Assembly (NCBI RefSeq): GCF_000731315.1
Contig: NZ_HG938353.1
Span: 3,224,001 to 3,288,000 of the forward strand
Direction of reading: 5' to 3'
Length of the DNA: 64,000 nucleotides
Source: Neorhizobium galegae bv. orientalis str. HAMBI 540
GTDB lineage: Bacteria; Pseudomonadota; Alphaproteobacteria; Rhizobiales; Rhizobiaceae
Below are positions 4,329-24,371 of the stretch, piece after piece; the first letter of the stretch is position 1; each line of letters opens with the position of its first letter. The position numbers and the translations under genes were made by a program. Under the pieces are notes generated by a model. That model saw only the letters and a program-made list of their open reading frames with translations, did no database searches and had not been told where the DNA came from.

Positions 4329-5810
4329 CTATTTGACCAGTTTGCCGCCGAGATAAAGCTCGAGCGTCTTTGCCGTCCCCTGCTCCCAGAGCGTCTTCAG
4401 CGAATGCGCAAAGCGGGTGCGGAACAGCTCGGATTTCGCAACGTCACCAAAAATATCGCCGAGCGCAAGGAAGGCGTCCGGGTTATCCTTAGCTTTCAGC
4501 GCGGCGGCGTTCAGGCGGTCGGCGCTGGCGTCGTTGAAGACGATCTCCTTGCCGCTGTCGGAGGTGCCGGCGAAATAGCGGCACCACAGCGCCGAGACCA
4601 GCGACAGGCCGATGATGTCCTGTCCCTTGGCGAGCCGGTCGGCGGTCGAGGGCAGGATGAATTTCGGCTGGCGGTTGGAACCGTCCTGCGCCAACCGAGG
4701 GATCGTGTCGCCGATCTTGGGGTTTGAGAAGCGTCGCTCGATCAGCTTGTAGTAGTCGATGAGGTTGGTATTCGGCACCGGCGGGATGACCGGAATGATC
4801 TCGTCCTTCTCCAATTTTTCGAGGAAGCCGCGGATCAGCTTATGCTCCATCGCCTCGTGCACGAAATGGATGTCGAGAAGGGCGGCCGGATAGGCGATCG
4901 CCGCATGGCCGCCGTTGAGGATGCGCAGCTTCATCAGCTCATAGGGCGCCACGTCGGGCACAAACTGGACGCCGACCTCTTCCAGCCGAGGCCGGCCGGC
5001 GGGGAACTTGTCCTCCATCACCCACTGCTTGAATTCTTCGCAGAACACCGGCCAGTTGTCGTCAATGCCGAAATCGTTTTTGAGGATATCGATCTCGCGG
5101 CTACCCGTCGCCGGCGTGATGCGGTCGACCATCGAGCTCGGGAACGCGACGTTCTCGTGGATCCAGCGGGCGAAGTCAGGGTCGGAAAGCTTGGCGAGCC
5201 CGATGACGGCGTTCTCCGTCACCTCGCCGTTTCCGGGAATGTTGTCGCAGGACATGATGGTGAACGGGGCGATCCCCCGCGCCTTGCGCTCCTTGAGGCC
5301 GGCGAGGATCAGGCCGAAAACGGTCTTCGGGTTCTGCGGGTTCCGACCGTCCTCGGCAATCGCCGGGTGGGCGGGGCTGAATCGGCCGGAAGCGTCGATG
5401 AAATAGCCGCCTTCGGTGATCGTCATCGAAACGATACGGATCTTCGGGTCTGCCAATGTCTCGATTACGGTCGCGACGTCGCCAGGAGCGATGATGTCGA
5501 TCATCGGCGCGGTCACGCGGGCGGCGGTCCTGTTATTATCCTGCTCGACGACGGTGGTCAGAAAATCCTGGGCCTTCAGCTTGTCACGCATGGCGCCATC
5601 AGATGGCATCACGCCGGCGCCGACGATCGCCCAGTCATGCGCCTTGCCAGTATTGAACAGGTCGTCGAGATAGATTGCCTGGTGGGCGCGATGGAAATTG
5701 CCGACGCCGAAATGCAAGATGCCGGCAGTCAGGCTCTTCGGATCATAGGCCGGCACGGCGGCGGTGGCCGCAGCGTCACTCAAGCTCGCCAGCGAAAGCT
5801 TCACAGTCAT
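4329..5810 (-). CDS. mtlK: Mannitol dehydrogenase-family polyol 2-dehydrogenase
   Basis: NAD-dependent long-chain polyol dehydrogenase of 493 aa, oxidising a hexitol or pentitol to the 2-ketose. The nucleotide-binding N-terminus shows GILHFGVGNFHRAHQ. The active-site signature KLRILNGGH supplies K294, N299 and H302, the catalytic lysine and its partners in this family. Length is typical of MtlK, mannitol 2-dehydrogenase and arabinitol dehydrogenases. It lies 23 nt after the transporter ATPase gene in the same operon. Mannitol, arabinitol and sorbitol are all possible; the adjacent pentulokinase argues that a pentitol is at least one substrate. Confidence 0.9.
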   Translation of the reverse strand: MTVKLSLASLSDAAATAAVPAYDPKSLTAGILHFGVGNFHRAHQAIYLDDLFNTGKAHDWAIVGAGVMPSDGAMRDKLKAQDFLTTVVEQDNNRTAARVTAPMIDIIAPGDVATVIETLADPKIRIVSMTITEGGYFIDASGRFSPAHPAIAEDGRNPQNPKTVFGLILAGLKERKARGIAPFTIMSCDNIPGNGEVTENAVIGLAKLSDPDFARWIHENVAFPSSMVDRITPATGSREIDILKNDFGIDDNWPVFCEEFKQWVMEDKFPAGRPRLEEVGVQFVPDVAPYELMKLRILNGGHAAIAYPAALLDIHFVHEAMEHKLIRGFLEKLEKDEIIPVIPPVPNTNLIDYYKLIERRFSNPKIGDTIPRLAQDGSNRQPKFILPSTADRLAKGQDIIGLSLVSALWCRYFAGTSDSGKEIVFNDASADRLNAAALKAKDNPDAFLALGDIFGDVAKSELFRTRFAHSLKTLWEQGTAKTLELYLGGKLVK

Positions 5811-17472: not shown

Positions 17473-18483
17473 ATGTTCACCTACACCTTGCGACGATTGC
17501 TCTTCGCAATCCCGACGCTGCTGATCATCAGCTTCGTCATTTTCGCGCTACTCGATCTTGCCCCCAACGATCCGACCGGCGACCTGCCGTTGACGATCCC
17601 GCCGGAGGTCCGCGAACAGATCCGCGCATCGCTCGGCCTCGATCAGCCATTCTTCTTCCGCTACCTCTACTGGCTGCAGCAATTCTTCATCAACGAACCT
17701 CTCAACATCCTCGAACGCCTGACCGGCTGGCAATTCGGCGATGGCACCCGCATGCGGGTGCTGTCCTGGGCGACCCGCAGCCCGGTGGTCGACCTGATCG
17801 TCCAGCGCCTGCCCCAGACGCTATGGGTCGTTGGTCTCGCCTACGTGTTCGGGGTGATGATCGCCGTTCCGATCGGCGTCATCTCCGCCTACAAGCAGTA
17901 CTCGATCTTCGACCAGATCGGCACGTTCCTGTCGATGGTCGGATACTCGGTGCCGACCTTCTTCACCGGCGTGCTGCTGGTCGTCATCTTCTCCTCCTGG
18001 CTGCAATGGTTCCCGTCGGTCTATGACACCAACCTGGTCGTCAACGACTTCTCGAGCTTCCTGCAGCAGATCAAGCAGATGGCCTTGCCGGTCACCGTTC
18101 TGTCGCTTTTCAACGCCTCGCAGATCACCCGTTTCGTGCGGGCCTCGATGCTCGACAACCTGCACCAGGACTATGTACGCACCGCGCGTGCCAAGGGCGT
18201 CAAGGAAAAGTCGGTTCTGCTCATCCATGTGCTGCGCAACAGCCTGATCCCGGTCGTCACCGTGATCGCGCTCGGCGTGCCGACGATCTTTTCGGGCGCC
18301 ATCATCACCGAGCAGATCTTTCGCGTGAACGGGCTTGGCCAATTGCTGATCATCGCGGTTCAGGGCGCCGATATCCCACTCGTCCAGACCCTGACCTTCA
18401 TCTTCGCGGTGCTGATCGTGCTCTTCAACCTCATCGCCGACGTGCTTTACGGCATTCTTGACCCGAGGATCCGTTATGACTGA
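17473..18483 (+). CDS. Dipeptide-type ABC importer permease (DppB-like)
   Basis: Inner-membrane permease of 336 aa. The N-terminal helix MFTYTLRRLLFAIPTLLIIS is typical of DppB/OppB proteins. The C-terminal half has the coupling motif ARAKGVKEKSVLLIHVLRN. The start is ATG 17473, preceded by GGAGA, rather than the TTG directly before it. It overlaps the next permease gene by 8 bp, indicating coupled translation. Confidence 0.9.
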   Translation: MFTYTLRRLLFAIPTLLIISFVIFALLDLAPNDPTGDLPLTIPPEVREQIRASLGLDQPFFFRYLYWLQQFFINEPLNILERLTGWQFGDGTRMRVLSWATRSPVVDLIVQRLPQTLWVVGLAYVFGVMIAVPIGVISAYKQYSIFDQIGTFLSMVGYSVPTFFTGVLLVVIFSSWLQWFPSVYDTNLVVNDFSSFLQQIKQMALPVTVLSLFNASQITRFVRASMLDNLHQDYVRTARAKGVKEKSVLLIHVLRNSLIPVVTVIALGVPTIFSGAIITEQIFRVNGLGQLLIIAVQGADIPLVQTLTFIFAVLIVLFNLIADVLYGILDPRIRYD

Positions 18484-19402
18484 TGCGACGCTTACAACCG
18501 CCCCGCCCGCCAAGGCGGCAACTCCCACCAGGTCGGCGCTCGCGGATATCTGGCGTCAGTTCCGTTCCCACAAGGGCGGAGTAGTCGGATTGATCGTGTT
18601 CACGTTCATCGTGCTGGCGGTGTTCGTAGGCCCGTATATCCACCGGGTGGCCCCGAACGCCATCAATATCCGCGACAAGAACCAATGGCCCTCCTGGGCA
18701 CATCCGTTCGGCACCGATAACCTCGGCAAGGACATGCTTGCCCAGGTGCTCGCCGGCGGCCGCATCTCGCTTGCGGTCGGTATTACGGCGATGCTGCTGG
18801 CGCTTTTCCTCGGAACCCTGGTGGGGGTAGTCTCCGGCTATATCCGCAGGCTCGACGGTCCGCTGATGCGCGTCACCGACCTGTTCCTGGCCCTGCCGCT
18901 CCTGCCGCTGCTGCTCGTCATCCTGATGCTGTTTCGCGATACCTTGCGGGCGGCATTCGGACCGGAGACCGGCATCTTCATCCTGATCGTCTTCGTGATC
19001 GGAATCACCAGCTGGATGCACACCGCCCGTATCGTGCGCGGCGATGTGCTGGCCGTCAAAAGCCAGGAATTCATCCTGGCGGCGAAGGCGAGCGGCATGC
19101 GGGAGTATCGCATCATCCTCAGGCACATCCTGCCAAACGTGCTGAGCTCGATCATGGTTTCGGCGACATTGGGCATCGCTTCGGCGATCATCACGGAATC
19201 GGCGTTGAGCTTCCTGGGCCTCGGCTTTCCTTCGGATTTCCCGACCTGGGGACGGCTGTTGTTCGACGGCGCCAACTTCCTGCAGTTGACACCCTCGCGC
19301 GTGCTCTGGCCGGGCCTGGCGATCTCGCTGACTGTACTCAGCGTCAACTACATGGGCGATGCGATCCGCGACGCGCTCGATCCGAGAGCGCTGAAACACT
19401 GA
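18476..19402 (+). CDS. Dipeptide-type ABC importer permease (DppC-like)
   Basis: Second permease, 308 aa. It has the OppC N-terminal region (IWRQFRSHKGGVVGLIVFTF), the HPFGTDNLGKDML motif of DppC proteins, and the coupling loop ARIVRGDVLAVKSQEFILAAKASG. Start ATG 18476 has GAGGA upstream and lies inside the 3-prime end of the preceding permease gene. It forms the membrane pore with that permease; the ATPases are most likely supplied by the fused protein encoded at 12323-14170. Confidence 0.9.
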   Translation: MTDATLTTAPPAKAATPTRSALADIWRQFRSHKGGVVGLIVFTFIVLAVFVGPYIHRVAPNAINIRDKNQWPSWAHPFGTDNLGKDMLAQVLAGGRISLAVGITAMLLALFLGTLVGVVSGYIRRLDGPLMRVTDLFLALPLLPLLLVILMLFRDTLRAAFGPETGIFILIVFVIGITSWMHTARIVRGDVLAVKSQEFILAAKASGMREYRIILRHILPNVLSSIMVSATLGIASAIITESALSFLGLGFPSDFPTWGRLLFDGANFLQLTPSRVLWPGLAISLTVLSVNYMGDAIRDALDPRALKH

Positions 19403-19425
19403 GCCCGCCACACGGGCCCGATCGG

Positions 19426-19449
19426 AATGGCGGCTGCAAAGCCGCCATT
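19426..19449 (+). terminator. Terminator-like hairpin after the permease operon
   Basis: Perfect 9-bp stem AATGGCGGC/GCCGCCATT with loop TGCAAA, 23 nt after the DppC stop. The T-content downstream is weak (CTTCACTC), so termination may be partial or Rho-assisted. Confidence 0.6.
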
Positions 19450-19510
19450 CTTCACTCACCAGCCCAAAAAAAAGACCGCTGAAAAAAATTCAAAAAAGTT
19501 TGGAACTGCT

Positions 19511-19535
19511 GGAACCTATTCCCGAGGCGCCCGTT
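19511..19535 (+). promoter_or_regulatory. EcfG-type promoter GGAAC-N16-CGTT
   Basis: GGAAC at 19511-19515 and CGTT at 19532-19535 with a 16-nt spacer match the general stress response sigma factor promoter exactly. It points into a stretch without protein genes, toward the small-RNA candidate. Confidence 0.75.
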
Positions 19536-19541
19536 ATGTGA

Positions 19542-19664
19542 GTGTTCGAAGGCGACCCCCCCGTCCCCCGCCCTACAAAGCCTTCGGACATACTCTTCAA
19601 TCCCCCTCGAAGAGACGAACTGGCTCGGCTCCGTCAACCGGAACCGGGCCAGCTCAGTTTTGTG
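19542..19664 (+). ncRNA. Candidate GsrN-like stress-induced small RNA
   Basis: Predicted ~120-nt transcript starting about 7 nt after the EcfG-type promoter. Hairpin 1: CGAAGGC (19547-19553) pairs with GCCTTCG (19580-19586), and its 26-nt loop is almost all C (seven, then five, then three C). Hairpin 2: CTCTTC (19593-19598) pairs with GAAGAG (19609-19614), with TCCCCC in the loop. Hairpin 3: CTGGCTCGG (19620-19628) pairs with CCGGGCCAG (19644-19652), and TTTT follows four nt later, a terminator. C-rich loops that pair with Shine-Dalgarno sequences, an EcfG-family promoter and proximity to nepR-ecfG are known for Caulobacter GsrN; homology here is inference. Confidence 0.6.
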
Positions 19665-19670
19665 GGGTAT

Positions 19671-19751
19671 GGTGAGTAATGGCGCTGCGAGCGAGCTTTT
19701 CGCAAAGGCTCACGTCGCGGGGGCCATCAATGAGCTGGAAAGCTACTCACC
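19671..19751. repeat. Long nested inverted-repeat structure
   Basis: Four nested arm pairs: GGTGAGTA/TACTCACC (19671-19678, 19744-19751), ATGGC/GCCAT (19679-19683, 19723-19727), GCGA/TCGC (19687-19690, 19715-19718) and GAGC/GCTC (19693-19696, 19708-19711). It lies 12 bp past the kinase stop. It could be a terminator for the kinase, a second structured RNA, or a protein-binding site; no T-run is present on either side. Confidence 0.5.
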
Positions 19752-19763
19752 AACGACTATCCT

Positions 19764-20810
19764 TCAATCCCCGCCGCTCTCCAGCGGGAATACCAGCCGA
19801 TAGCTGATGCGGTCGCTGGAGATGACATATTGCGCCTTGCCGTTGACCGAGGCGGGCACGACGCGTTCCAGCACGGTGCTGCCGAAATGCGCCTTCAGCG
19901 AGTCCTCGGTATCTTCGGAGCTCCGGCTGGCATCCAGCACTTCGTCCCAGATCATCTCGAGCGAGTCATGGCCGTTGAGGTGCATGCGGGTGCAGGTGAC
20001 GTTGATCACCCGGCCGCTGCGCAAAAGCGAACCGTGGCTGACCGCGTTGACGATCAGCTCGTGCAGCGCCAGCCCGATATGCAGCGAGGCGTTCGGCGTC
20101 AGAAGGATGTTGTCCCCGTGGACGCGCACGAGATGCTTGTTCTCGGGCAGGTACTTTTCCGTCTGCTGCTGCACCAGTTCGAAAAAATAGGCGCCGCGCC
20201 AGCTGGAATCGGTGATCAGGTCCTGGCTCTGCGAGAGTGAATAAAGCCGCCCCCGGAACTTGTGCAAAAACAGTTCCAGCGAGCCTGAATAACGGGCCGT
20301 CTGCAGCGCAATACTCTGGATGATGGCGAGTAGGTTCTTGGAACGGTGGCTGACCTCGCGCAGCAGCGCACGCAGCAGCCGCTCGCGATGACGTTCCTCG
20401 GAACGGTCGATGATGGTGGTGACGAAATGCAGGCCGCCATTGGAAAATTCCACCGTCTGGACGCGGAACTCGTAGATCTGCTCGGTGCCGATGGTAATCT
20501 CGATATGGCCTTTGCGACCCGCTTCCGTCATGCCGTCTTTGAGGGTCGCGAGCTTTGCCCCGACCTCGTCGCCGAACAGGCTGACATCGGTGGGTGTCCT
20601 GACATGCTCGACCGCCCAGACCTCCGGAAGATGAGTGACGAAGAGATAATTGCGGCCTGCGTCCTGGATCATGATGCTGGCGCCGAGATCCACCAGCGCC
20701 GGCATGAAAAATTCGCGTAACTTGTCATCACTCTGACCAGCCTGCTGCCATGTCAGGGGATTCACCAAGTTACTCACTCCGTCTGCGGGCTTGCTGGGGA
20801 AACCGGGCAC
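19764..20810 (-). CDS. PhyK-like sensor histidine kinase (PAS plus HisKA_2/HWE type)
   Basis: Soluble sensor kinase of up to 348 aa. A PAS-like sensor spans about residues 38-135 and the phosphoacceptor box REVSHRSKNLLAII follows, with H155. The ATPase domain has an N-box ELIVNAVSHG and FGSTVLERVV, but the glycine-rich G-box is poorly conserved. As the only kinase beside phyR it is the best candidate to phosphorylate PhyR. The 5-prime end is uncertain: GTG at 20810 gives this length, while GTG 20777 or GTG 20765 (VNPLTWQQ) would be shorter. It may be co-transcribed with the DUF1328 gene upstream and so lie under stress feedback. Confidence 0.83.
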   Translation of the reverse strand: MPGFPSKPADGVSNLVNPLTWQQAGQSDDKLREFFMPALVDLGASIMIQDAGRNYLFVTHLPEVWAVEHVRTPTDVSLFGDEVGAKLATLKDGMTEAGRKGHIEITIGTEQIYEFRVQTVEFSNGGLHFVTTIIDRSEERHRERLLRALLREVSHRSKNLLAIIQSIALQTARYSGSLELFLHKFRGRLYSLSQSQDLITDSSWRGAYFFELVQQQTEKYLPENKHLVRVHGDNILLTPNASLHIGLALHELIVNAVSHGSLLRSGRVINVTCTRMHLNGHDSLEMIWDEVLDASRSSEDTEDSLKAHFGSTVLERVVPASVNGKAQYVISSDRISYRLVFPLESGGD

Positions 20811-20868: not shown

Positions 20869-21033
20869 TCAAACACGCCGGAACAACCCGACCACCAGCG
20901 ATATCAGCAACAGTGCGAGAAACAGGAAAAACAGGAGCTGCGCGAGGCCGGTTGCCGTTCCTGCAATGCCACTGAAGCCGAGCGCACCGGTGAAGATCGC
21001 GACGAGCAGGCAGACAAGAGCATAATACAACAT
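20869..21033 (-). CDS. DUF1328 small membrane protein
   Basis: A 54-aa protein of the YtjA/DUF1328 family, almost entirely two membrane helices ([20 protein letters not shown] then [19 protein letters not shown]). The start ATG 21033 is fixed by GAGGAAAG at good spacing; longer upstream readings are not convincing. An exact EcfG-type promoter lies 26 bp upstream. Function is unknown; related genes in alphaproteobacteria are often stress-induced. The sensor kinase gene follows on the same strand. Confidence 0.88.
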
Positions 21034-21058: not shown

Positions 21059-21083
21059 AACGCTACCCGTTGCATTTTGTTCC
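21059..21083 (-). promoter_or_regulatory. EcfG-type promoter before the DUF1328 gene
   Basis: On the minus strand GGAAC (21083-21079), a 16-nt spacer and CGTT (21062-21059) match the stress sigma factor consensus exactly. The expected start point leaves a leader of about 20 nt. Confidence 0.8.
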
Positions 21084-21114: not shown

Positions 21115-21909
21115 TCAAGCGGCGGCCTTTACGGCTTCGTTGAAGAACAGCGCCTGGCTGATCAACGCCTTCACCATGTCCGGGTTGAACGGCTTGGTAA
21201 CGAGGAAGGCCGGTTCCGGGCGTTCGCCGGTCAGAAGCCGCTCCGGGAAGGCGGTAATGAAGATCACCGGCACGCTCGAAGACTTCAAAATTTCGTTGAC
21301 CGCGTCGATACCGGAGCTGCCGTCGGCGAGCTGGATATCGGCGAGCACCATTTTCGGGTGCGAGGACTGGAAGAGCGACACCGCTTCCTTATGGGTGCGG
21401 GCGATGCCGGTGACGCGGTGGCCGAGATCCTGCACCATCTGTTCGATGTCGAGCGCGATCAGCGGCTCATCCTCGATAATCATGATGTCGGTCGCGACCT
21501 GCCGCGAGATTTCCCGCGTCGCATCGTCGAGCAGACGGTTCACTTCAGCGGCGCTGACATCCAGGACTTCCGCGGCTTCATCGATGCTGAAACCCTCCAC
21601 CGAGACAAGCAGGAATGCATGCCGCGACTGGGAGGGAAGCATCGAGAGATTGGCCGCCGCGCGCTGCTCCCAGGCAAACGGCGATTCGATCGGGCGAATC
21701 TCGATGTTCGTGGAACCAAAAATTGTAACAAAGAGTTTATAGAGCGAAACACGGTCCTTGGACGTTTCGGGGAATATCGAAACGTCTGCGATCAAAGCTT
21801 CCAGGACCGCGGCAACATAGGCGTCTCCCGAGGTCTGTGATCCGGTGACGGCGCGAGCATACCGACGCAGATATGGAAGGTGAGACGCAACGCGTGTGGT
21901 GAGTGACAT
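21115..21909 (-). CDS. phyR: PhyR, sigma-mimic response regulator of the general stress response
   Basis: Anti-anti-sigma response regulator of 264 aa. The N-terminal half (about 1-125) is an EcfG-like sigma domain that cannot bind DNA but mimics the sigma factor. The C-terminal receiver (about 140-255) has E146/D147, phosphoacceptor D191 in MVLADIQLADG, and K239 in VTKPF. Phosphorylated PhyR binds NepR and releases EcfG. I start at ATG 21909 with GGGAG upstream. It is divergent from nepR-ecfG and its own promoter matches the EcfG consensus, giving positive feedback. Confidence 0.95.
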   Translation of the reverse strand: MSLTTRVASHLPYLRRYARAVTGSQTSGDAYVAAVLEALIADVSIFPETSKDRVSLYKLFVTIFGSTNIEIRPIESPFAWEQRAAANLSMLPSQSRHAFLLVSVEGFSIDEAAEVLDVSAAEVNRLLDDATREISRQVATDIMIIEDEPLIALDIEQMVQDLGHRVTGIARTHKEAVSLFQSSHPKMVLADIQLADGSSGIDAVNEILKSSSVPVIFITAFPERLLTGERPEPAFLVTKPFNPDMVKALISQALFFNEAVKAAA

Positions 21910-22010: not shown

Positions 22011-22047
22011 CCTTTGCCCGACGATATCGCAACAGGCTGCCCGCGTG

Positions 22048-22260
22048 ATGAGTGACGACAACAGAAAAAAAGAAGAGATGACAGCAATCCAATCCCAAGA
22101 AGTCCGACCCGGAGCGGTGCCGCCGAATGCATCCATATCCCGCAAGTTACGGGACTTCTACGACGCGGTACAGGAAGAAGGGATTCCGGATCGTTTTCTC
22201 GATCTTCTCGAGCGCCTGGAACAGGCTGAGAAGAACGCCAAACCGGTGAACGCAAAATGA
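22048..22260 (+). CDS. nepR: NepR anti-sigma factor
   Basis: Small anti-sigma factor of 70 aa that holds EcfG inactive until PhyR-P binds it. The conserved core ISRKLRDFYDAVQEEGIPDR with FLDLLERLE covers the two helices that grip the sigma factor. The N-terminal third is polar and variable, as usual. ATG 22048 is taken as start; a GTG lies directly before it. The stop overlaps the ecfG start by ATGA, coupling the two at equal dosage. Confidence 0.92.
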   Translation: MSDDNRKKEEMTAIQSQEVRPGAVPPNASISRKLRDFYDAVQEEGIPDRFLDLLERLEQAEKNAKPVNAK

Positions 22261-22823
22261 GTAAGGAAGACGAGATCGACGATCGCGGCTTCAAGCGCGA
22301 CCTTCTCGCGTCGCTGCCCAATCTGCGTGCCTTCGCGGTATCCCTGACAGGCCGGCACGACAAGGCGGACGACCTTGTGCAGGATACAATCATGAAAGCC
22401 TGGGCCAACCAGACCAGCTTCACCGCCGGCACCAACATGCGGGCATGGCTGTTCACCATCCTGCGCAACGAATTCTACAGCCAGATGCGCAAGCGCGGAC
22501 GCGAGGTGCAGGATAGCGACGGCCTGTTCAGCGAGCGTTTCTCGGTCCATCCGGAACAGTACGGCAGGCTCGACCTGCAGGATTTCCGCAAGGCGCTCGA
22601 CAAGCTGCCCGACGATCAGCGCGAAGCGATCATCCTCGTGGGTGCTGCCGGTTTCGCCTATGAGGAGGCGGCAGCGATCTGCGGCTGCGCCGTTGGCACC
22701 ATCAAGAGCCGCGTCAGCCGCGCCCGCGCCCGCCTGCAGGAGCTGCTGGGCGTTTCCGGCGAGGGCGACTACGGCCCCGATGCAGGCGATGCCGCGATCA
22801 CCTCACGTGCTTTTGGCAGCTGA
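22257..22823 (+). CDS. ecfG: EcfG (RpoE2-like) general stress response sigma factor
   Basis: ECF sigma factor of 188 aa. Region 2 (about 12-80) contains DDLVQDTIMKAWANQ and the -10 recognition helix TNMRAWLFTILRNEFYSQMRKR. Region 4 (about 105-165) contains LPDDQREAIILVGAAGFAYEEAA and the -35-binding helix VGTIKSRVSRARARL. It directs RNA polymerase to GGAAC-N16-CGTT promoters, several of which lie in this window. Translation is coupled to nepR. Confidence 0.95.
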   Translation: MSKEDEIDDRGFKRDLLASLPNLRAFAVSLTGRHDKADDLVQDTIMKAWANQTSFTAGTNMRAWLFTILRNEFYSQMRKRGREVQDSDGLFSERFSVHPEQYGRLDLQDFRKALDKLPDDQREAIILVGAAGFAYEEAAAICGCAVGTIKSRVSRARARLQELLGVSGEGDYGPDAGDAAITSRAFGS

Positions 22824-23396: not shown

Positions 23397-23852
23397 TTAT
23401 TCGGCCGGCTCGGAATATCGGCGGTTCGAAGTGCTCATGGACTTCGCCGCGAGGAAGCCAAGACCGCCGACCACCGCGACGAGCAGCAGCGGACGTGATT
23501 TGACCAGCAGCGGCAATGCCGTCAGAGCCGCCGTCATCATCAACGCCTTGGAACTGTTGGAGGCCGCGGCTTCCCGCTTGCGGCGCTGTTCGGCGCCGTT
23601 GGCGATGACCACGCAGAGATACAGGATCAATGCCAGCAAGAGCGCACCGCCGGCGACTGCAAGCAGCGCGATCGGCGGTCCCCAGATGCCGGCGAGATAG
23701 ACGGCAAGCGCCGCCACCGCCAGCCCATAGGCCGTCAGCAGGAAAAGCAACACGAAAGCATAGAAGATCGCGTTTCTTTTGAGCTTGCGCGTCAACGCCG
23801 CGATGTCCATCGCGGCGAGCGAAGCCAAAAGGGGGCCAAGGCCTGTCATCAT
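23397..23852 (-). CDS. Holin-like envelope protein (phage holin/DUF1469-type)
   Basis: Membrane protein of 151 aa with two hydrophobic helices in the middle (FYAFVLLFLLTAYGLAVAAL, IALLAVAGGALLLALILYL) and a third weaker one near the C-terminus (RPLLLVAVVGGLGFLAAK). It resembles the phage-holin superfamily partner commonly found after DUF883 genes in proteobacteria, not an actual lysis gene. Start and stop overlap the upstream gene (TGATG). Probable role is at the envelope under stress; function not established. Confidence 0.8.
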   Translation of the reverse strand: MMTGLGPLLASLAAMDIAALTRKLKRNAIFYAFVLLFLLTAYGLAVAALAVYLAGIWGPPIALLAVAGGALLLALILYLCVVIANGAEQRRKREAAASNSSKALMMTAALTALPLLVKSRPLLLVAVVGGLGFLAAKSMSTSNRRYSEPAE

Positions 23853-24199
23853 CAGCGACGCGTCAGCAGCGCGAAGAGGAATCCGACCCCGGCGGCGATG
23901 GCGACGGCCTGGATAGGGTTGGTGCGGATCTGGCGTTCCAGATCCTTTTCCATCGACAGGGCCTGGTCGCGGGCGGCTTCCACCATCTGCATCGAAGCAT
24001 CTGCAGCGTCGTTGGCGACCCGGCGGGCCTTGCCCTTGTATTCGCTGGCTTTGTCGTTGCCGACGGCGGCAACGCTGCGGGCGAGCGCTGCGATATCGTC
24101 CCGAAGCTGCTGGATCTGGGCTTCGACATCCTTGCTGGCTGCCGAGTTCTGGCCGGTGCCATTGCGGGTGAAGTCGGTCGTTGGGTTGGCTGCGGGCAT
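23852..24199 (-). CDS. DUF883 (YqjD/ElaB-like) membrane-anchored protein
   Basis: Protein of 115 aa with a long helical, probably coiled-coil region (VEAQIQQLRDDIAALARSVAA to MEKDLERQIRTNP) and a C-terminal membrane anchor (AVAIAAGVGFLFALLTRR). This is the YqjD/ElaB layout; E. coli YqjD tethers ribosomes to the membrane in stationary phase, but that role is not shown here. Start ATG 24199 has AGGAG 6 nt upstream. An exact EcfG-type promoter lies about 150 bp upstream, so the pair is likely in the stress regulon. Confidence 0.85.
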   Translation of the reverse strand: MPAANPTTDFTRNGTGQNSAASKDVEAQIQQLRDDIAALARSVAAVGNDKASEYKGKARRVANDAADASMQMVEAARDQALSMEKDLERQIRTNPIQAVAIAAGVGFLFALLTRR

Positions 24200-24346
24200 A
24201 TCGATCTCCTGTTTTGCGAACCTTAGAGGACGCGAGCCGCGGAAGGCTTTGCGCGGAATCAAACGGCTTCAGAAACGTGGAACGGGATCGGTCTCCCGAG
24301 CGAGCGACGCACGTTACCCGCTTCACGCTTCCTGTCGCCGCCGGTG

Positions 24347-24371
24347 AACGCAGCAACAGCGCGATTGTTCC
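24347..24371 (-). promoter_or_regulatory. EcfG-type promoter before the DUF883 pair
   Basis: Minus-strand GGAAC (24371-24367), 16-nt spacer, CGTT (24350-24347). The predicted leader to the DUF883 start is about 140 nt. The promoter lies just after the stop of the amidase gene on the same strand. Confidence 0.7.

What the first reader, a model, noticed from the sequence alone, without database searches (positions are those of the whole stretch)
19511..19664. EcfG-driven small RNA with C-rich loops beside the stress locus, a probable GsrN homolog
The 361-bp stretch between the permease operon and the kinase has no protein gene but holds an exact GGAAC-N16-CGTT promoter pointing right. About 7 nt later a ~120-nt structured segment begins: a 7-bp hairpin with a loop of nearly pure C, a 6-bp hairpin with TCCCCC in its loop, and a 9-bp terminator hairpin followed by TTTT. 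Caulobacter GsrN, transcribed by the stress sigma factor, uses a C-rich loop to bind ribosome sites (katG). The same architecture here suggests this locus encodes its own post-transcriptional arm. The homology is inferred, not searched.
Basis: partly seen in the sequence, partly recalled or inferred. Interest (0 to 1): 0.85.

Follow-up and report, generated by a model that had tools for sequence, protein, structure and literature searches.

The report
Stress-response small RNA beside phyR-ecfG
A soil bacterium appears to carry, next to its general-stress switch, a small non-coding RNA with C-rich loops that its close relatives share; it belongs to an already described kind of stress RNA, but the best-known target of that kind does not look conserved here.

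Summary
An exact sigma-EcfG promoter (19511-19535) precedes a three-hairpin, apparently non-coding segment (about 19542-19661) in the 361-bp gap between a peptide-ABC permease and an HWE kinase of the phyR-nepR-ecfG locus. The genome is of the Neorhizobium group. BLAST finds the element in 57 of 57 same-genus genomes. All 60 copies counted have the promoter, and 57 of 60 lie within 1.2 kb of the kinase gene. Loop cores are nearly invariant; 16 of 29 base pairs show two-sided change. Look-alikes sit near phyR in 20 of 40 other Rhizobiaceae regions, picked partly by eye, and in Sinorhizobium meliloti. The kind is known: Rhizobium etli ReC64 has the same position and promoter and is EcfG-dependent, and Tien et al. 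2018 proposed GsrN homologs here in Rhizobiaceae. Caulobacter GsrN's katG mechanism gets no support: 15 of 57 genomes show no KatG-family match, and 1 of 31 katG leaders beats shuffles for loop 1. Best reading: a ReC64/GsrN-like RNA whose C-rich loops bind G-rich mRNA leaders. Targets are unknown; a G-rich yhhN leader is one unproven lead.

The parts
19511..19535 (+). sigma-EcfG promoter GGAAC-N16-CGTT
   Evidence: exact match; GGAAC-N16/17-CGTT upstream of 60 of 60 genus copies
19542..19661 (+). predicted small RNA, ReC64/GsrN-like, about 120 nt (start inferred from promoter spacing, end from the T-run)
   Evidence: fold z -4.8; element in 57 of 57 genus genomes; covariation
19542..19591 (+). 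hairpin 1, 10-12 bp, with large C-rich loop 19554-19579
   Evidence: 6 of 10 consensus pairs with two-sided change; loop core C(3-7)GTC(4-6)GCCC in 60 of 60 copies
19593..19614 (+). hairpin 2, CTCTTC-AATCCCCCTC-GAAGAG; stem the same in all counted copies, loop slightly variable
   Evidence: stem pairs never vary in 38 aligned copies; 60 copies have four loop forms, 36/18/5/1
19620..19661 (+). hairpin 3 plus TTTT, probable (weak) intrinsic terminator
   Evidence: 10 of 13 pairs with two-sided change; no hit in the terminator scan
19764..20810 (-). HWE histidine kinase of the GSR locus, convergent neighbour
   Evidence: PF07536; homologue within 1.2 kb of 57 of 60 copies
21115..21909 (-). phyR (start inferred inside the longer ORF)
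   Evidence: NF006623, PF22029
22045..22260 (+). nepR
   Evidence: PF18557
22257..22823 (+). ecfG sigma factor
   Evidence: PF04542/PF08281, NF009169

Best explanation
The segment is a trans-acting small RNA gene of the general stress response, the Neorhizobium counterpart of R. etli ReC64 and of the GsrN-like RNAs proposed for Rhizobiaceae. Stress frees sigma-EcfG from NepR, EcfG transcribes the RNA from 19511-19535 starting near 19542, and transcription ends after hairpin 3. The two unpaired C-rich loops are the contact surfaces that pair with G-rich stretches in mRNA leaders (Shine-Dalgarno or upstream G-tracts), changing translation or stability, probably with Hfq. Shown here: promoter, predicted structure, conservation, covariation, position. 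From published work on relatives: EcfG-dependent transcription (R. etli ReC64) and C-loop pairing to a G-rich leader (Caulobacter GsrN). Inferred: expression in this organism, Hfq dependence, and targets; katG is probably not the conserved target.
For: Element in 57 of 57 same-genus genomes; 60 of 60 copies with GGAAC-N16/17-CGTT and 57 of 60 near the kinase. In 38 of the 60 copies aligned, 16 of 29 pairs change on both sides and 98.8% of cells pair, against 89.0% in shuffles and 20-50% when slid; loop cores nearly invariant. No consistent ORF on the RNA's strand. Reciprocal covariance models: R2, built from 10 other-genus RNAs, was run on 12 of the 60 Neorhizobium-group copies (window included) and hit 9; its 12 best hits in that call all lie on sites chosen beforehand as the RNA. 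R1 hits 6 of 20 other-genus candidates at E<=0.01, all on the RNA, and a further genome, L066, at 47.7 bits behind GCAAC-N16-CGTT. Named counterpart in S. meliloti Ak57 beside rsiB1, 123 bits with R2. R. etli ReC64: same place, EcfG consensus promoter, 5' RACE start, expression abolished in the ecfG1 mutant.
Against: No transcript data for this organism. One of five covariation measures (further pair types, 29 against 27.3) does not exceed shuffles (114 of 500). R2 scores the window only weakly (17.3 bits, E 0.044), misses 3 of 12 Neorhizobium-group sources and 7 of the 10 other-genus candidates not used to build it; R1 misses S. meliloti. Sites without an EcfG promoter reach 29-31 bits with R1 in genome-scale scans. 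The terminator is weak. Three-mismatch complements in the genome: loop 1, 6 besides self against 9 for the reversed pattern; hairpin 2, 9 against 3, an excess in which no place lies clearly over the start of a likely gene. katG pairing unsupported. The ReC64 sequence was not seen, so the link to it is by position and promoter.
Confidence: 0.8

Rival explanations
1. It is GsrN in the strict sense: an orthologue of Caulobacter GsrN that protects against peroxide by pairing its 5' C-loop with the katG leader.
For: Same promoter class, C-rich 5' loop, GSR proximity; Tien et al. proposed GsrN homologs in R. etli, S. meliloti and others.
Against: 15 of 57 genus genomes (13 of the 55 rated at least 90% complete and at most 5% contaminated) have no PF00141 match, while BLAST finds the RNA in all 57. 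Of 31 katG leaders (of 42 genomes with a match) 1 pairs with loop 1 and 0 with loop 2 at p<0.05 (one fixed loop sequence, 150 nt upstream, transcription starts unknown). Tien's own BLASTn hits were limited to Caulobacteraceae.
Confidence: 0.1
2. A leader or read-through element of a neighbouring gene rather than a free sRNA.
For: Weak terminator; about 100 nt separate it from the convergent kinase gene.
Against: The downstream gene is on the opposite strand. Three genomes keep a second copy with no kinase hit nearby (L058-L060). ReC64, at the same place in R. etli, is an 88-nt transcript.
Confidence: 0.05
3. The C-rich loops act as a sponge for a G-rich RNA or for a protein instead of pairing with mRNA leaders.
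For: Loop cores are nearly invariant over the genus and the hairpin-2 stem does not vary at all, as a fixed binding site might. No exact or 1-2-mismatch complement elsewhere in the genome.
Against: GsrN, the characterised relative in mechanism, pairs C-loop to G-rich leader with compensatory mutants. Loop sequences differ between genera.
Confidence: 0.12

Closest known systems
ReC64, Rhizobium etli (Jans et al. 2013, PMC3892343; section 21 read, passages elsewhere)
   Same: Intergenic place downstream of the phyR-kinase genes; sigma-EcfG consensus promoter GGAAC-N16-CGTT; trans-encoded ncRNA.
   Different: Expression is shown there, not here.
GsrN, Caulobacter crescentus, and proposed Rhizobiaceae GsrN homologs (Tien et al. 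2018, PMC5869019; sections 7, 11, 14 read, passages elsewhere)
   Same: EcfG-type promoter, exposed C-rich 5' loop, GSR-locus proximity in most relatives.
   Different: No support here for katG pairing; BLASTn hits to GsrN limited to Caulobacteraceae. The GsrN fold and sequence are in figures, which I did not see.
GSR-locus RNA of Sinorhizobium meliloti Ak57 (CP090106.1, L256:4940-5070)
   Same: Beside rsiB1 (phyR), GGAAC -35 element, C-rich hairpins, CCCCTC in the hairpin-2 part.
   Different: Sequence diverged: model R2 gives 123 bits, model R1 (Neorhizobium) no hit; -10 reads CATT (GGAAC-N16-CATT); no kinase gene between it and rsiB1.
Pxr (RF01812)
   Same: Best Rfam resemblance, over the whole model length.
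   Different: 22.9 bits against a gathering score of 80; not a member.

Membership tests
ReC64 / GSR-locus RNA of Rhizobiaceae | EcfG promoter GGAAC-N16-CGTT directly upstream | tested here: met
   60 of 60 genus copies
ReC64 / GSR-locus RNA of Rhizobiaceae | Intergenic position beyond the kinase gene of the phyR locus | tested here: met
   (57 of 60 copies)
ReC64 / GSR-locus RNA of Rhizobiaceae | Sequence/structure similarity across genera | tested here: inconclusive
   reciprocal models hit the right places but weakly (window 17.3 bits, E 0.044); R1 misses S. meliloti; ReC64 letters not available
ReC64 / GSR-locus RNA of Rhizobiaceae | EcfG-dependent transcript | not testable with these tools
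   shown for ReC64 only
GsrN (Caulobacter, strict sense) | Exposed C-rich 5' loop and EcfG-type promoter | tested here: met
GsrN (Caulobacter, strict sense) | Sequence similarity to Caulobacteraceae GsrN | not testable with these tools
   no named GsrN sequence in reach; in the paper it is in a figure
GsrN (Caulobacter, strict sense) | C-loop complementary to the katG leader | tested here: not met
   1 of 31 leaders p<0.05 for loop 1, 0 of 31 for loop 2; 15 of 57 genomes without PF00141 match
GsrN (Caulobacter, strict sense) | Processing to a stable 5' isoform, Hfq stabilisation | not testable with these tools
   needs Northern blots
Rfam families (Pxr and all others) | Score at or above the gathering threshold | tested here: not met
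   0 hits in the window; Pxr 22.9 against 80

The most novel reading that the evidence does not exclude
The alphaproteobacterial stress response carries at its core locus a fast-evolving family of C-rich-loop RNAs (hairpin 1 plus a second hairpin with a CCCCUC-type loop) whose targets have been rewired between lineages, away from katG and toward other G-rich leaders such as that of yhhN. In Neorhizobium the second hairpin is nearly frozen as a recognition module, and RNAs of this build may reach as far as a Sphingomonas-like genome, although Tien et al. saw no gsrN-like gene in Erythrobacter.
Probability: 0.3. Interest if true: 0.6.

Novelty: new member of a known kind. Interest (0 to 1): 0.42.

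Why it matters
It gives an alignment, consensus structure and search models for a stress RNA that no Rfam family matches, lines the R. etli ReC64 and S. meliloti GSR-locus RNAs up with it by position and promoter, and turns 'is katG the conserved target of GsrN-like RNAs?' into a testable question, with a first computed answer of 'probably not' for this genus.

Tried and rejected
Protein gene: the 82-aa ORF 19427-19675 is not conserved; longest overlapping ORFs on the RNA's strand range from 0 to 353 aa at varying positions in 60 copies. Rfam: nothing at gathering, weak resemblances only. Family-wide scan with R1 (199 genomes, strict filters, 17 candidates scored each): 7 with a match; besides the own genus (3) only G195 has a promoter; G074, G076 and G077 (29-31 bits) have none upstream and were set aside. 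Order-wide scan with R2 (297 genomes): genus g30 (3 genomes) is clear; the other seven weak hits lack the promoter. That scan missed the own genome, so its negatives say little. Extended complementarity: see the Against line; of 15 three-mismatch places 3 lie near a possible start; only L232 (yhhN) was followed. katG: not supported (one search was a first script that crashed). A 22-sequence cross-genus alignment (A2) was too poor for a model. L061 and L062 (weak BLAST places) are not copies and were dropped. L120 (Clostridia MAG) matched the hairpin-2 pattern, R1 24 bits, no promoter beside it: probably chance.

Selection caveats: the 60 copies were counted by a hairpin-2 pattern, but every one of the 57 main loci met it. 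The 40 other-genus regions were the stronger PhyR matches, one per genome, not a random draw. The 20 RNAs among them were picked partly by eye with C-rich loops as a criterion, which favours the resemblance; the rule-based count is 13 of 184 exact EcfG sites against 13 of 3000 random positions and 0 of 71 altered-promoter controls. A3 used 10 of those 20. L169's RNA lies 5.8 kb from PhyR and may be something else.

Literature searched for prior description: (listings). I saw no Neorhizobium RNA of this place named there; most subscription papers are not held.

Full report
Observation. The 361-bp gap 19403-19763 lies between the oppC-type permease (18458-19402, +) and an HWE kinase gene (19764-20810, -). 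An exact GGAAC-N16-CGTT starts at 19511. The following 123 nt fold to -49.3 kcal/mol, z -4.8, 0 of 200 shuffles as good, as three hairpins: 12 bp with a 26-nt C-rich loop, 6 bp with loop AAUCCCCCUC, and a 9+4 bp hairpin followed after 5 nt by TTTT. The kinase sits beside phyR (21115-21909, -), nepR (22045-22260, +) and ecfG (22257-22823, +).

Identity of the genome. The window lies in a 6.46-Mb, two-contig genome. A scan of named species genomes for the hairpin-2 pattern gave 54 stretches: one Clostridia MAG and otherwise Rhizobiales records, chiefly Neorhizobium, Pseudorhizobium, Endobacterium and Rhizobium species. Contig lengths tie some of these names to genomes of the window's genus, for example 244136 (Pseudorhizobium pelagicum, L038) and 39658 (Rhizobium straminoryzae, L055). 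The copies named Xaviernesmea oryzae and Shinella sp. are identical to genus copies L017 and L030. I call this the Neorhizobium group; the species of the window is not known.

Conservation. BLAST finds the element in 57 of 57 same-genus genomes, own included. Sixty copies (57 main, 3 second copies in G030, G004, G013) all have GGAAC-N16/17-CGTT upstream, and the 57 main copies have a kinase homologue within 1.2 kb. The loop-1 core C(3-7)GTC(4-6)GCCC is in 60 of 60; loop 2 has four forms (36, 18, 5, 1) with one stem. In 38 aligned copies stems 1 and 3 vary with compensation: 16 of 29 pairs have two-sided changes, 98.8% of cells pair, against 89.0% after shuffling and 20-50% when slid; the count of further pair types does not exceed shuffles (29 against 27.3). 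The invariant hairpin-2 stem suggests a sequence constraint there. No consistent reading frame exists on the RNA's strand.

Relatives in other genera. Of 121 sampled family genomes the tool tallies 119 with a PhyR match, but by my count of its table only 98 have E below 1e-60; the rest look like receiver-domain matches. In 40 other-genus PhyR regions, 13 of 184 exact EcfG sites are followed by at least three hairpins with two or more C-rich loops, against 13 of 3000 random positions (some may overlap the RNAs) and 0 of 71 altered promoters. With near-consensus promoters and inspection, 20 of 40 regions have such an RNA. CCCCTC occurs in nt 36-95, the hairpin-2 part, in 12 of 22 RNAs (20 others, S. 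meliloti, window) against 1.33 expected from letter shuffles that ignore relatedness. Model R2, built from 10 of these, hits 9 of 12 Neorhizobium-group sources given and 3 of the 10 candidates not used to build it, and its 12 best hits are all at predetermined RNA sites; the window itself is weak (17.3 bits, E 0.044). R1 returns 6 of 20 at E<=0.01, all on the RNAs; at E<=1 it has 12 hits, 2 of them elsewhere. S. meliloti Ak57 has the RNA between a carbohydrate-kinase gene and rsiB1, 123 bits with R2 and nothing with R1, so the Neorhizobium form has drifted far. Of 10 GSR regions outside the order two sites passed a loose filter: one (L258) runs into a phyR-like coding start, the other (L260, similar to Sphingomonas parapaucimobilis) is an exact EcfG site followed by a C-loop hairpin and a strong hairpin, 19 nt past a 524-aa ORF. 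R1 has its only hit in 168 kb there (23.1 bits, E 3.7e-4), but it covers mainly the second hairpin, and R2 has none; so this is a lead only.

Known kind. Jans et al. 2013 (section 21 read) describe R. etli ReC64: downstream of the phyR-tcrY genes, EcfG consensus promoter, 5' RACE start, 88 nt, expression abolished in ecfG1 mutants and activated by EcfG in E. coli. Tien et al. 2018 (section 14 read) proposed such RNAs of R. etli, S. meliloti, Agrobacterium, Brucella and others as GsrN homologs on position, promoter and C-rich loop. The window RNA is a further member of that kind. In S. meliloti 23 sRNAs have sigma-E2 motifs (passages); which of them is this RNA I could not determine.

Mechanism. 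In Caulobacter the GsrN C-loop pairs with the first nucleotides of katG mRNA, and compensatory mutations restore regulation. Here 15 of 57 genomes have no PF00141 match although BLAST finds the RNA in all, and of 31 katG leaders 1 pairs with loop 1 and 0 with loop 2 better than 95% of shuffles. Conservation through katG is therefore unlikely. Complements of loop 1 and of hairpin 2 occur elsewhere in the genome only with three mismatches: 6 against 9 reversed controls, and 9 against 3. One loop-1 place covers the ribosome site of yhhN (PF07947): GGGUCGGGGACGUGGGGGAAGAG-AUG, -37.9 kcal/mol with loop 1. Homologues were found in 20 of 57 genomes; 18 of 20 leaders keep a G5 or longer run just before the start and 13 of 20 beat shuffles at p<0.05. 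This was found after the fact among 15 places, the GGGGACG part looks like one arm of a local hairpin that varies in step with its other arm (by eye), and 37 genomes show no yhhN match, so it too cannot be the universal target. Pairing of the C-loops with G-rich leaders is the most likely mode by analogy with GsrN; Hfq involvement is inferred.

Verdict. Real, well conserved, and a new member of a known kind; moderately interesting for the family alignment, the absence from Rfam and the katG result. The re-check changed several facts (PhyR count, hairpin-2 loop variation, reach outside Rhizobiaceae weaker, yhhN lead added) and left the odds as they were.

Noticed in passing
L232:841-1494 (-), own genome C1 near 3665580: yhhN-family gene with an unusually G-rich ribosome site that pairs with loop 1 at -37.9 kcal/mol; a G5+ run is kept in 18 of 20 homologues. 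Candidate target, unproven.
   Followed up: partly
window 20869-21033 (-), promoter 21059-21083 (-): A short hydrophobic protein ([22 protein letters not shown]..., looks like the DUF1328 kind, name recalled) between kinase and phyR has its own exact EcfG motif.
   Followed up: partly
window 23852-24262 (-), promoter 24347-24371 (-): A DUF883-type protein (PF19029, below its cut-off) is preceded by an exact EcfG motif; 5 such motifs in the window against 1.07 expected. The one at 5319 lies inside a 493-aa ORF and is probably chance.
   Followed up: partly
L058, L059, L060: Three genomes have a second, diverged copy of the RNA with no kinase hit nearby, also with an exact EcfG promoter.
   Followed up: partly
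L260:10848-10995: A Sphingomonas-like genome has an EcfG promoter and C-loop hairpin just past a 524-aa ORF near phyR.
   Followed up: partly
window 19426-19452: GC-rich hairpin (AATGGCGGCTGCAAAGCCGCCATT) just after the permease gene, likely the end of that operon.
   Followed up: no
window 19671-19751: Inverted repeat GGTGAGTA...TACTCACC between the RNA and the kinase; L013 shows a tandem CACTCAC run near its RNA. Possibly a kinase-side terminator or a mobile repeat.
   Followed up: no
L067, L068, L069: Hairpins in other genera match model R1 at 29-31 bits, in two of the three on both strands, without an EcfG promoter; perhaps a palindromic repeat family.
   Followed up: no
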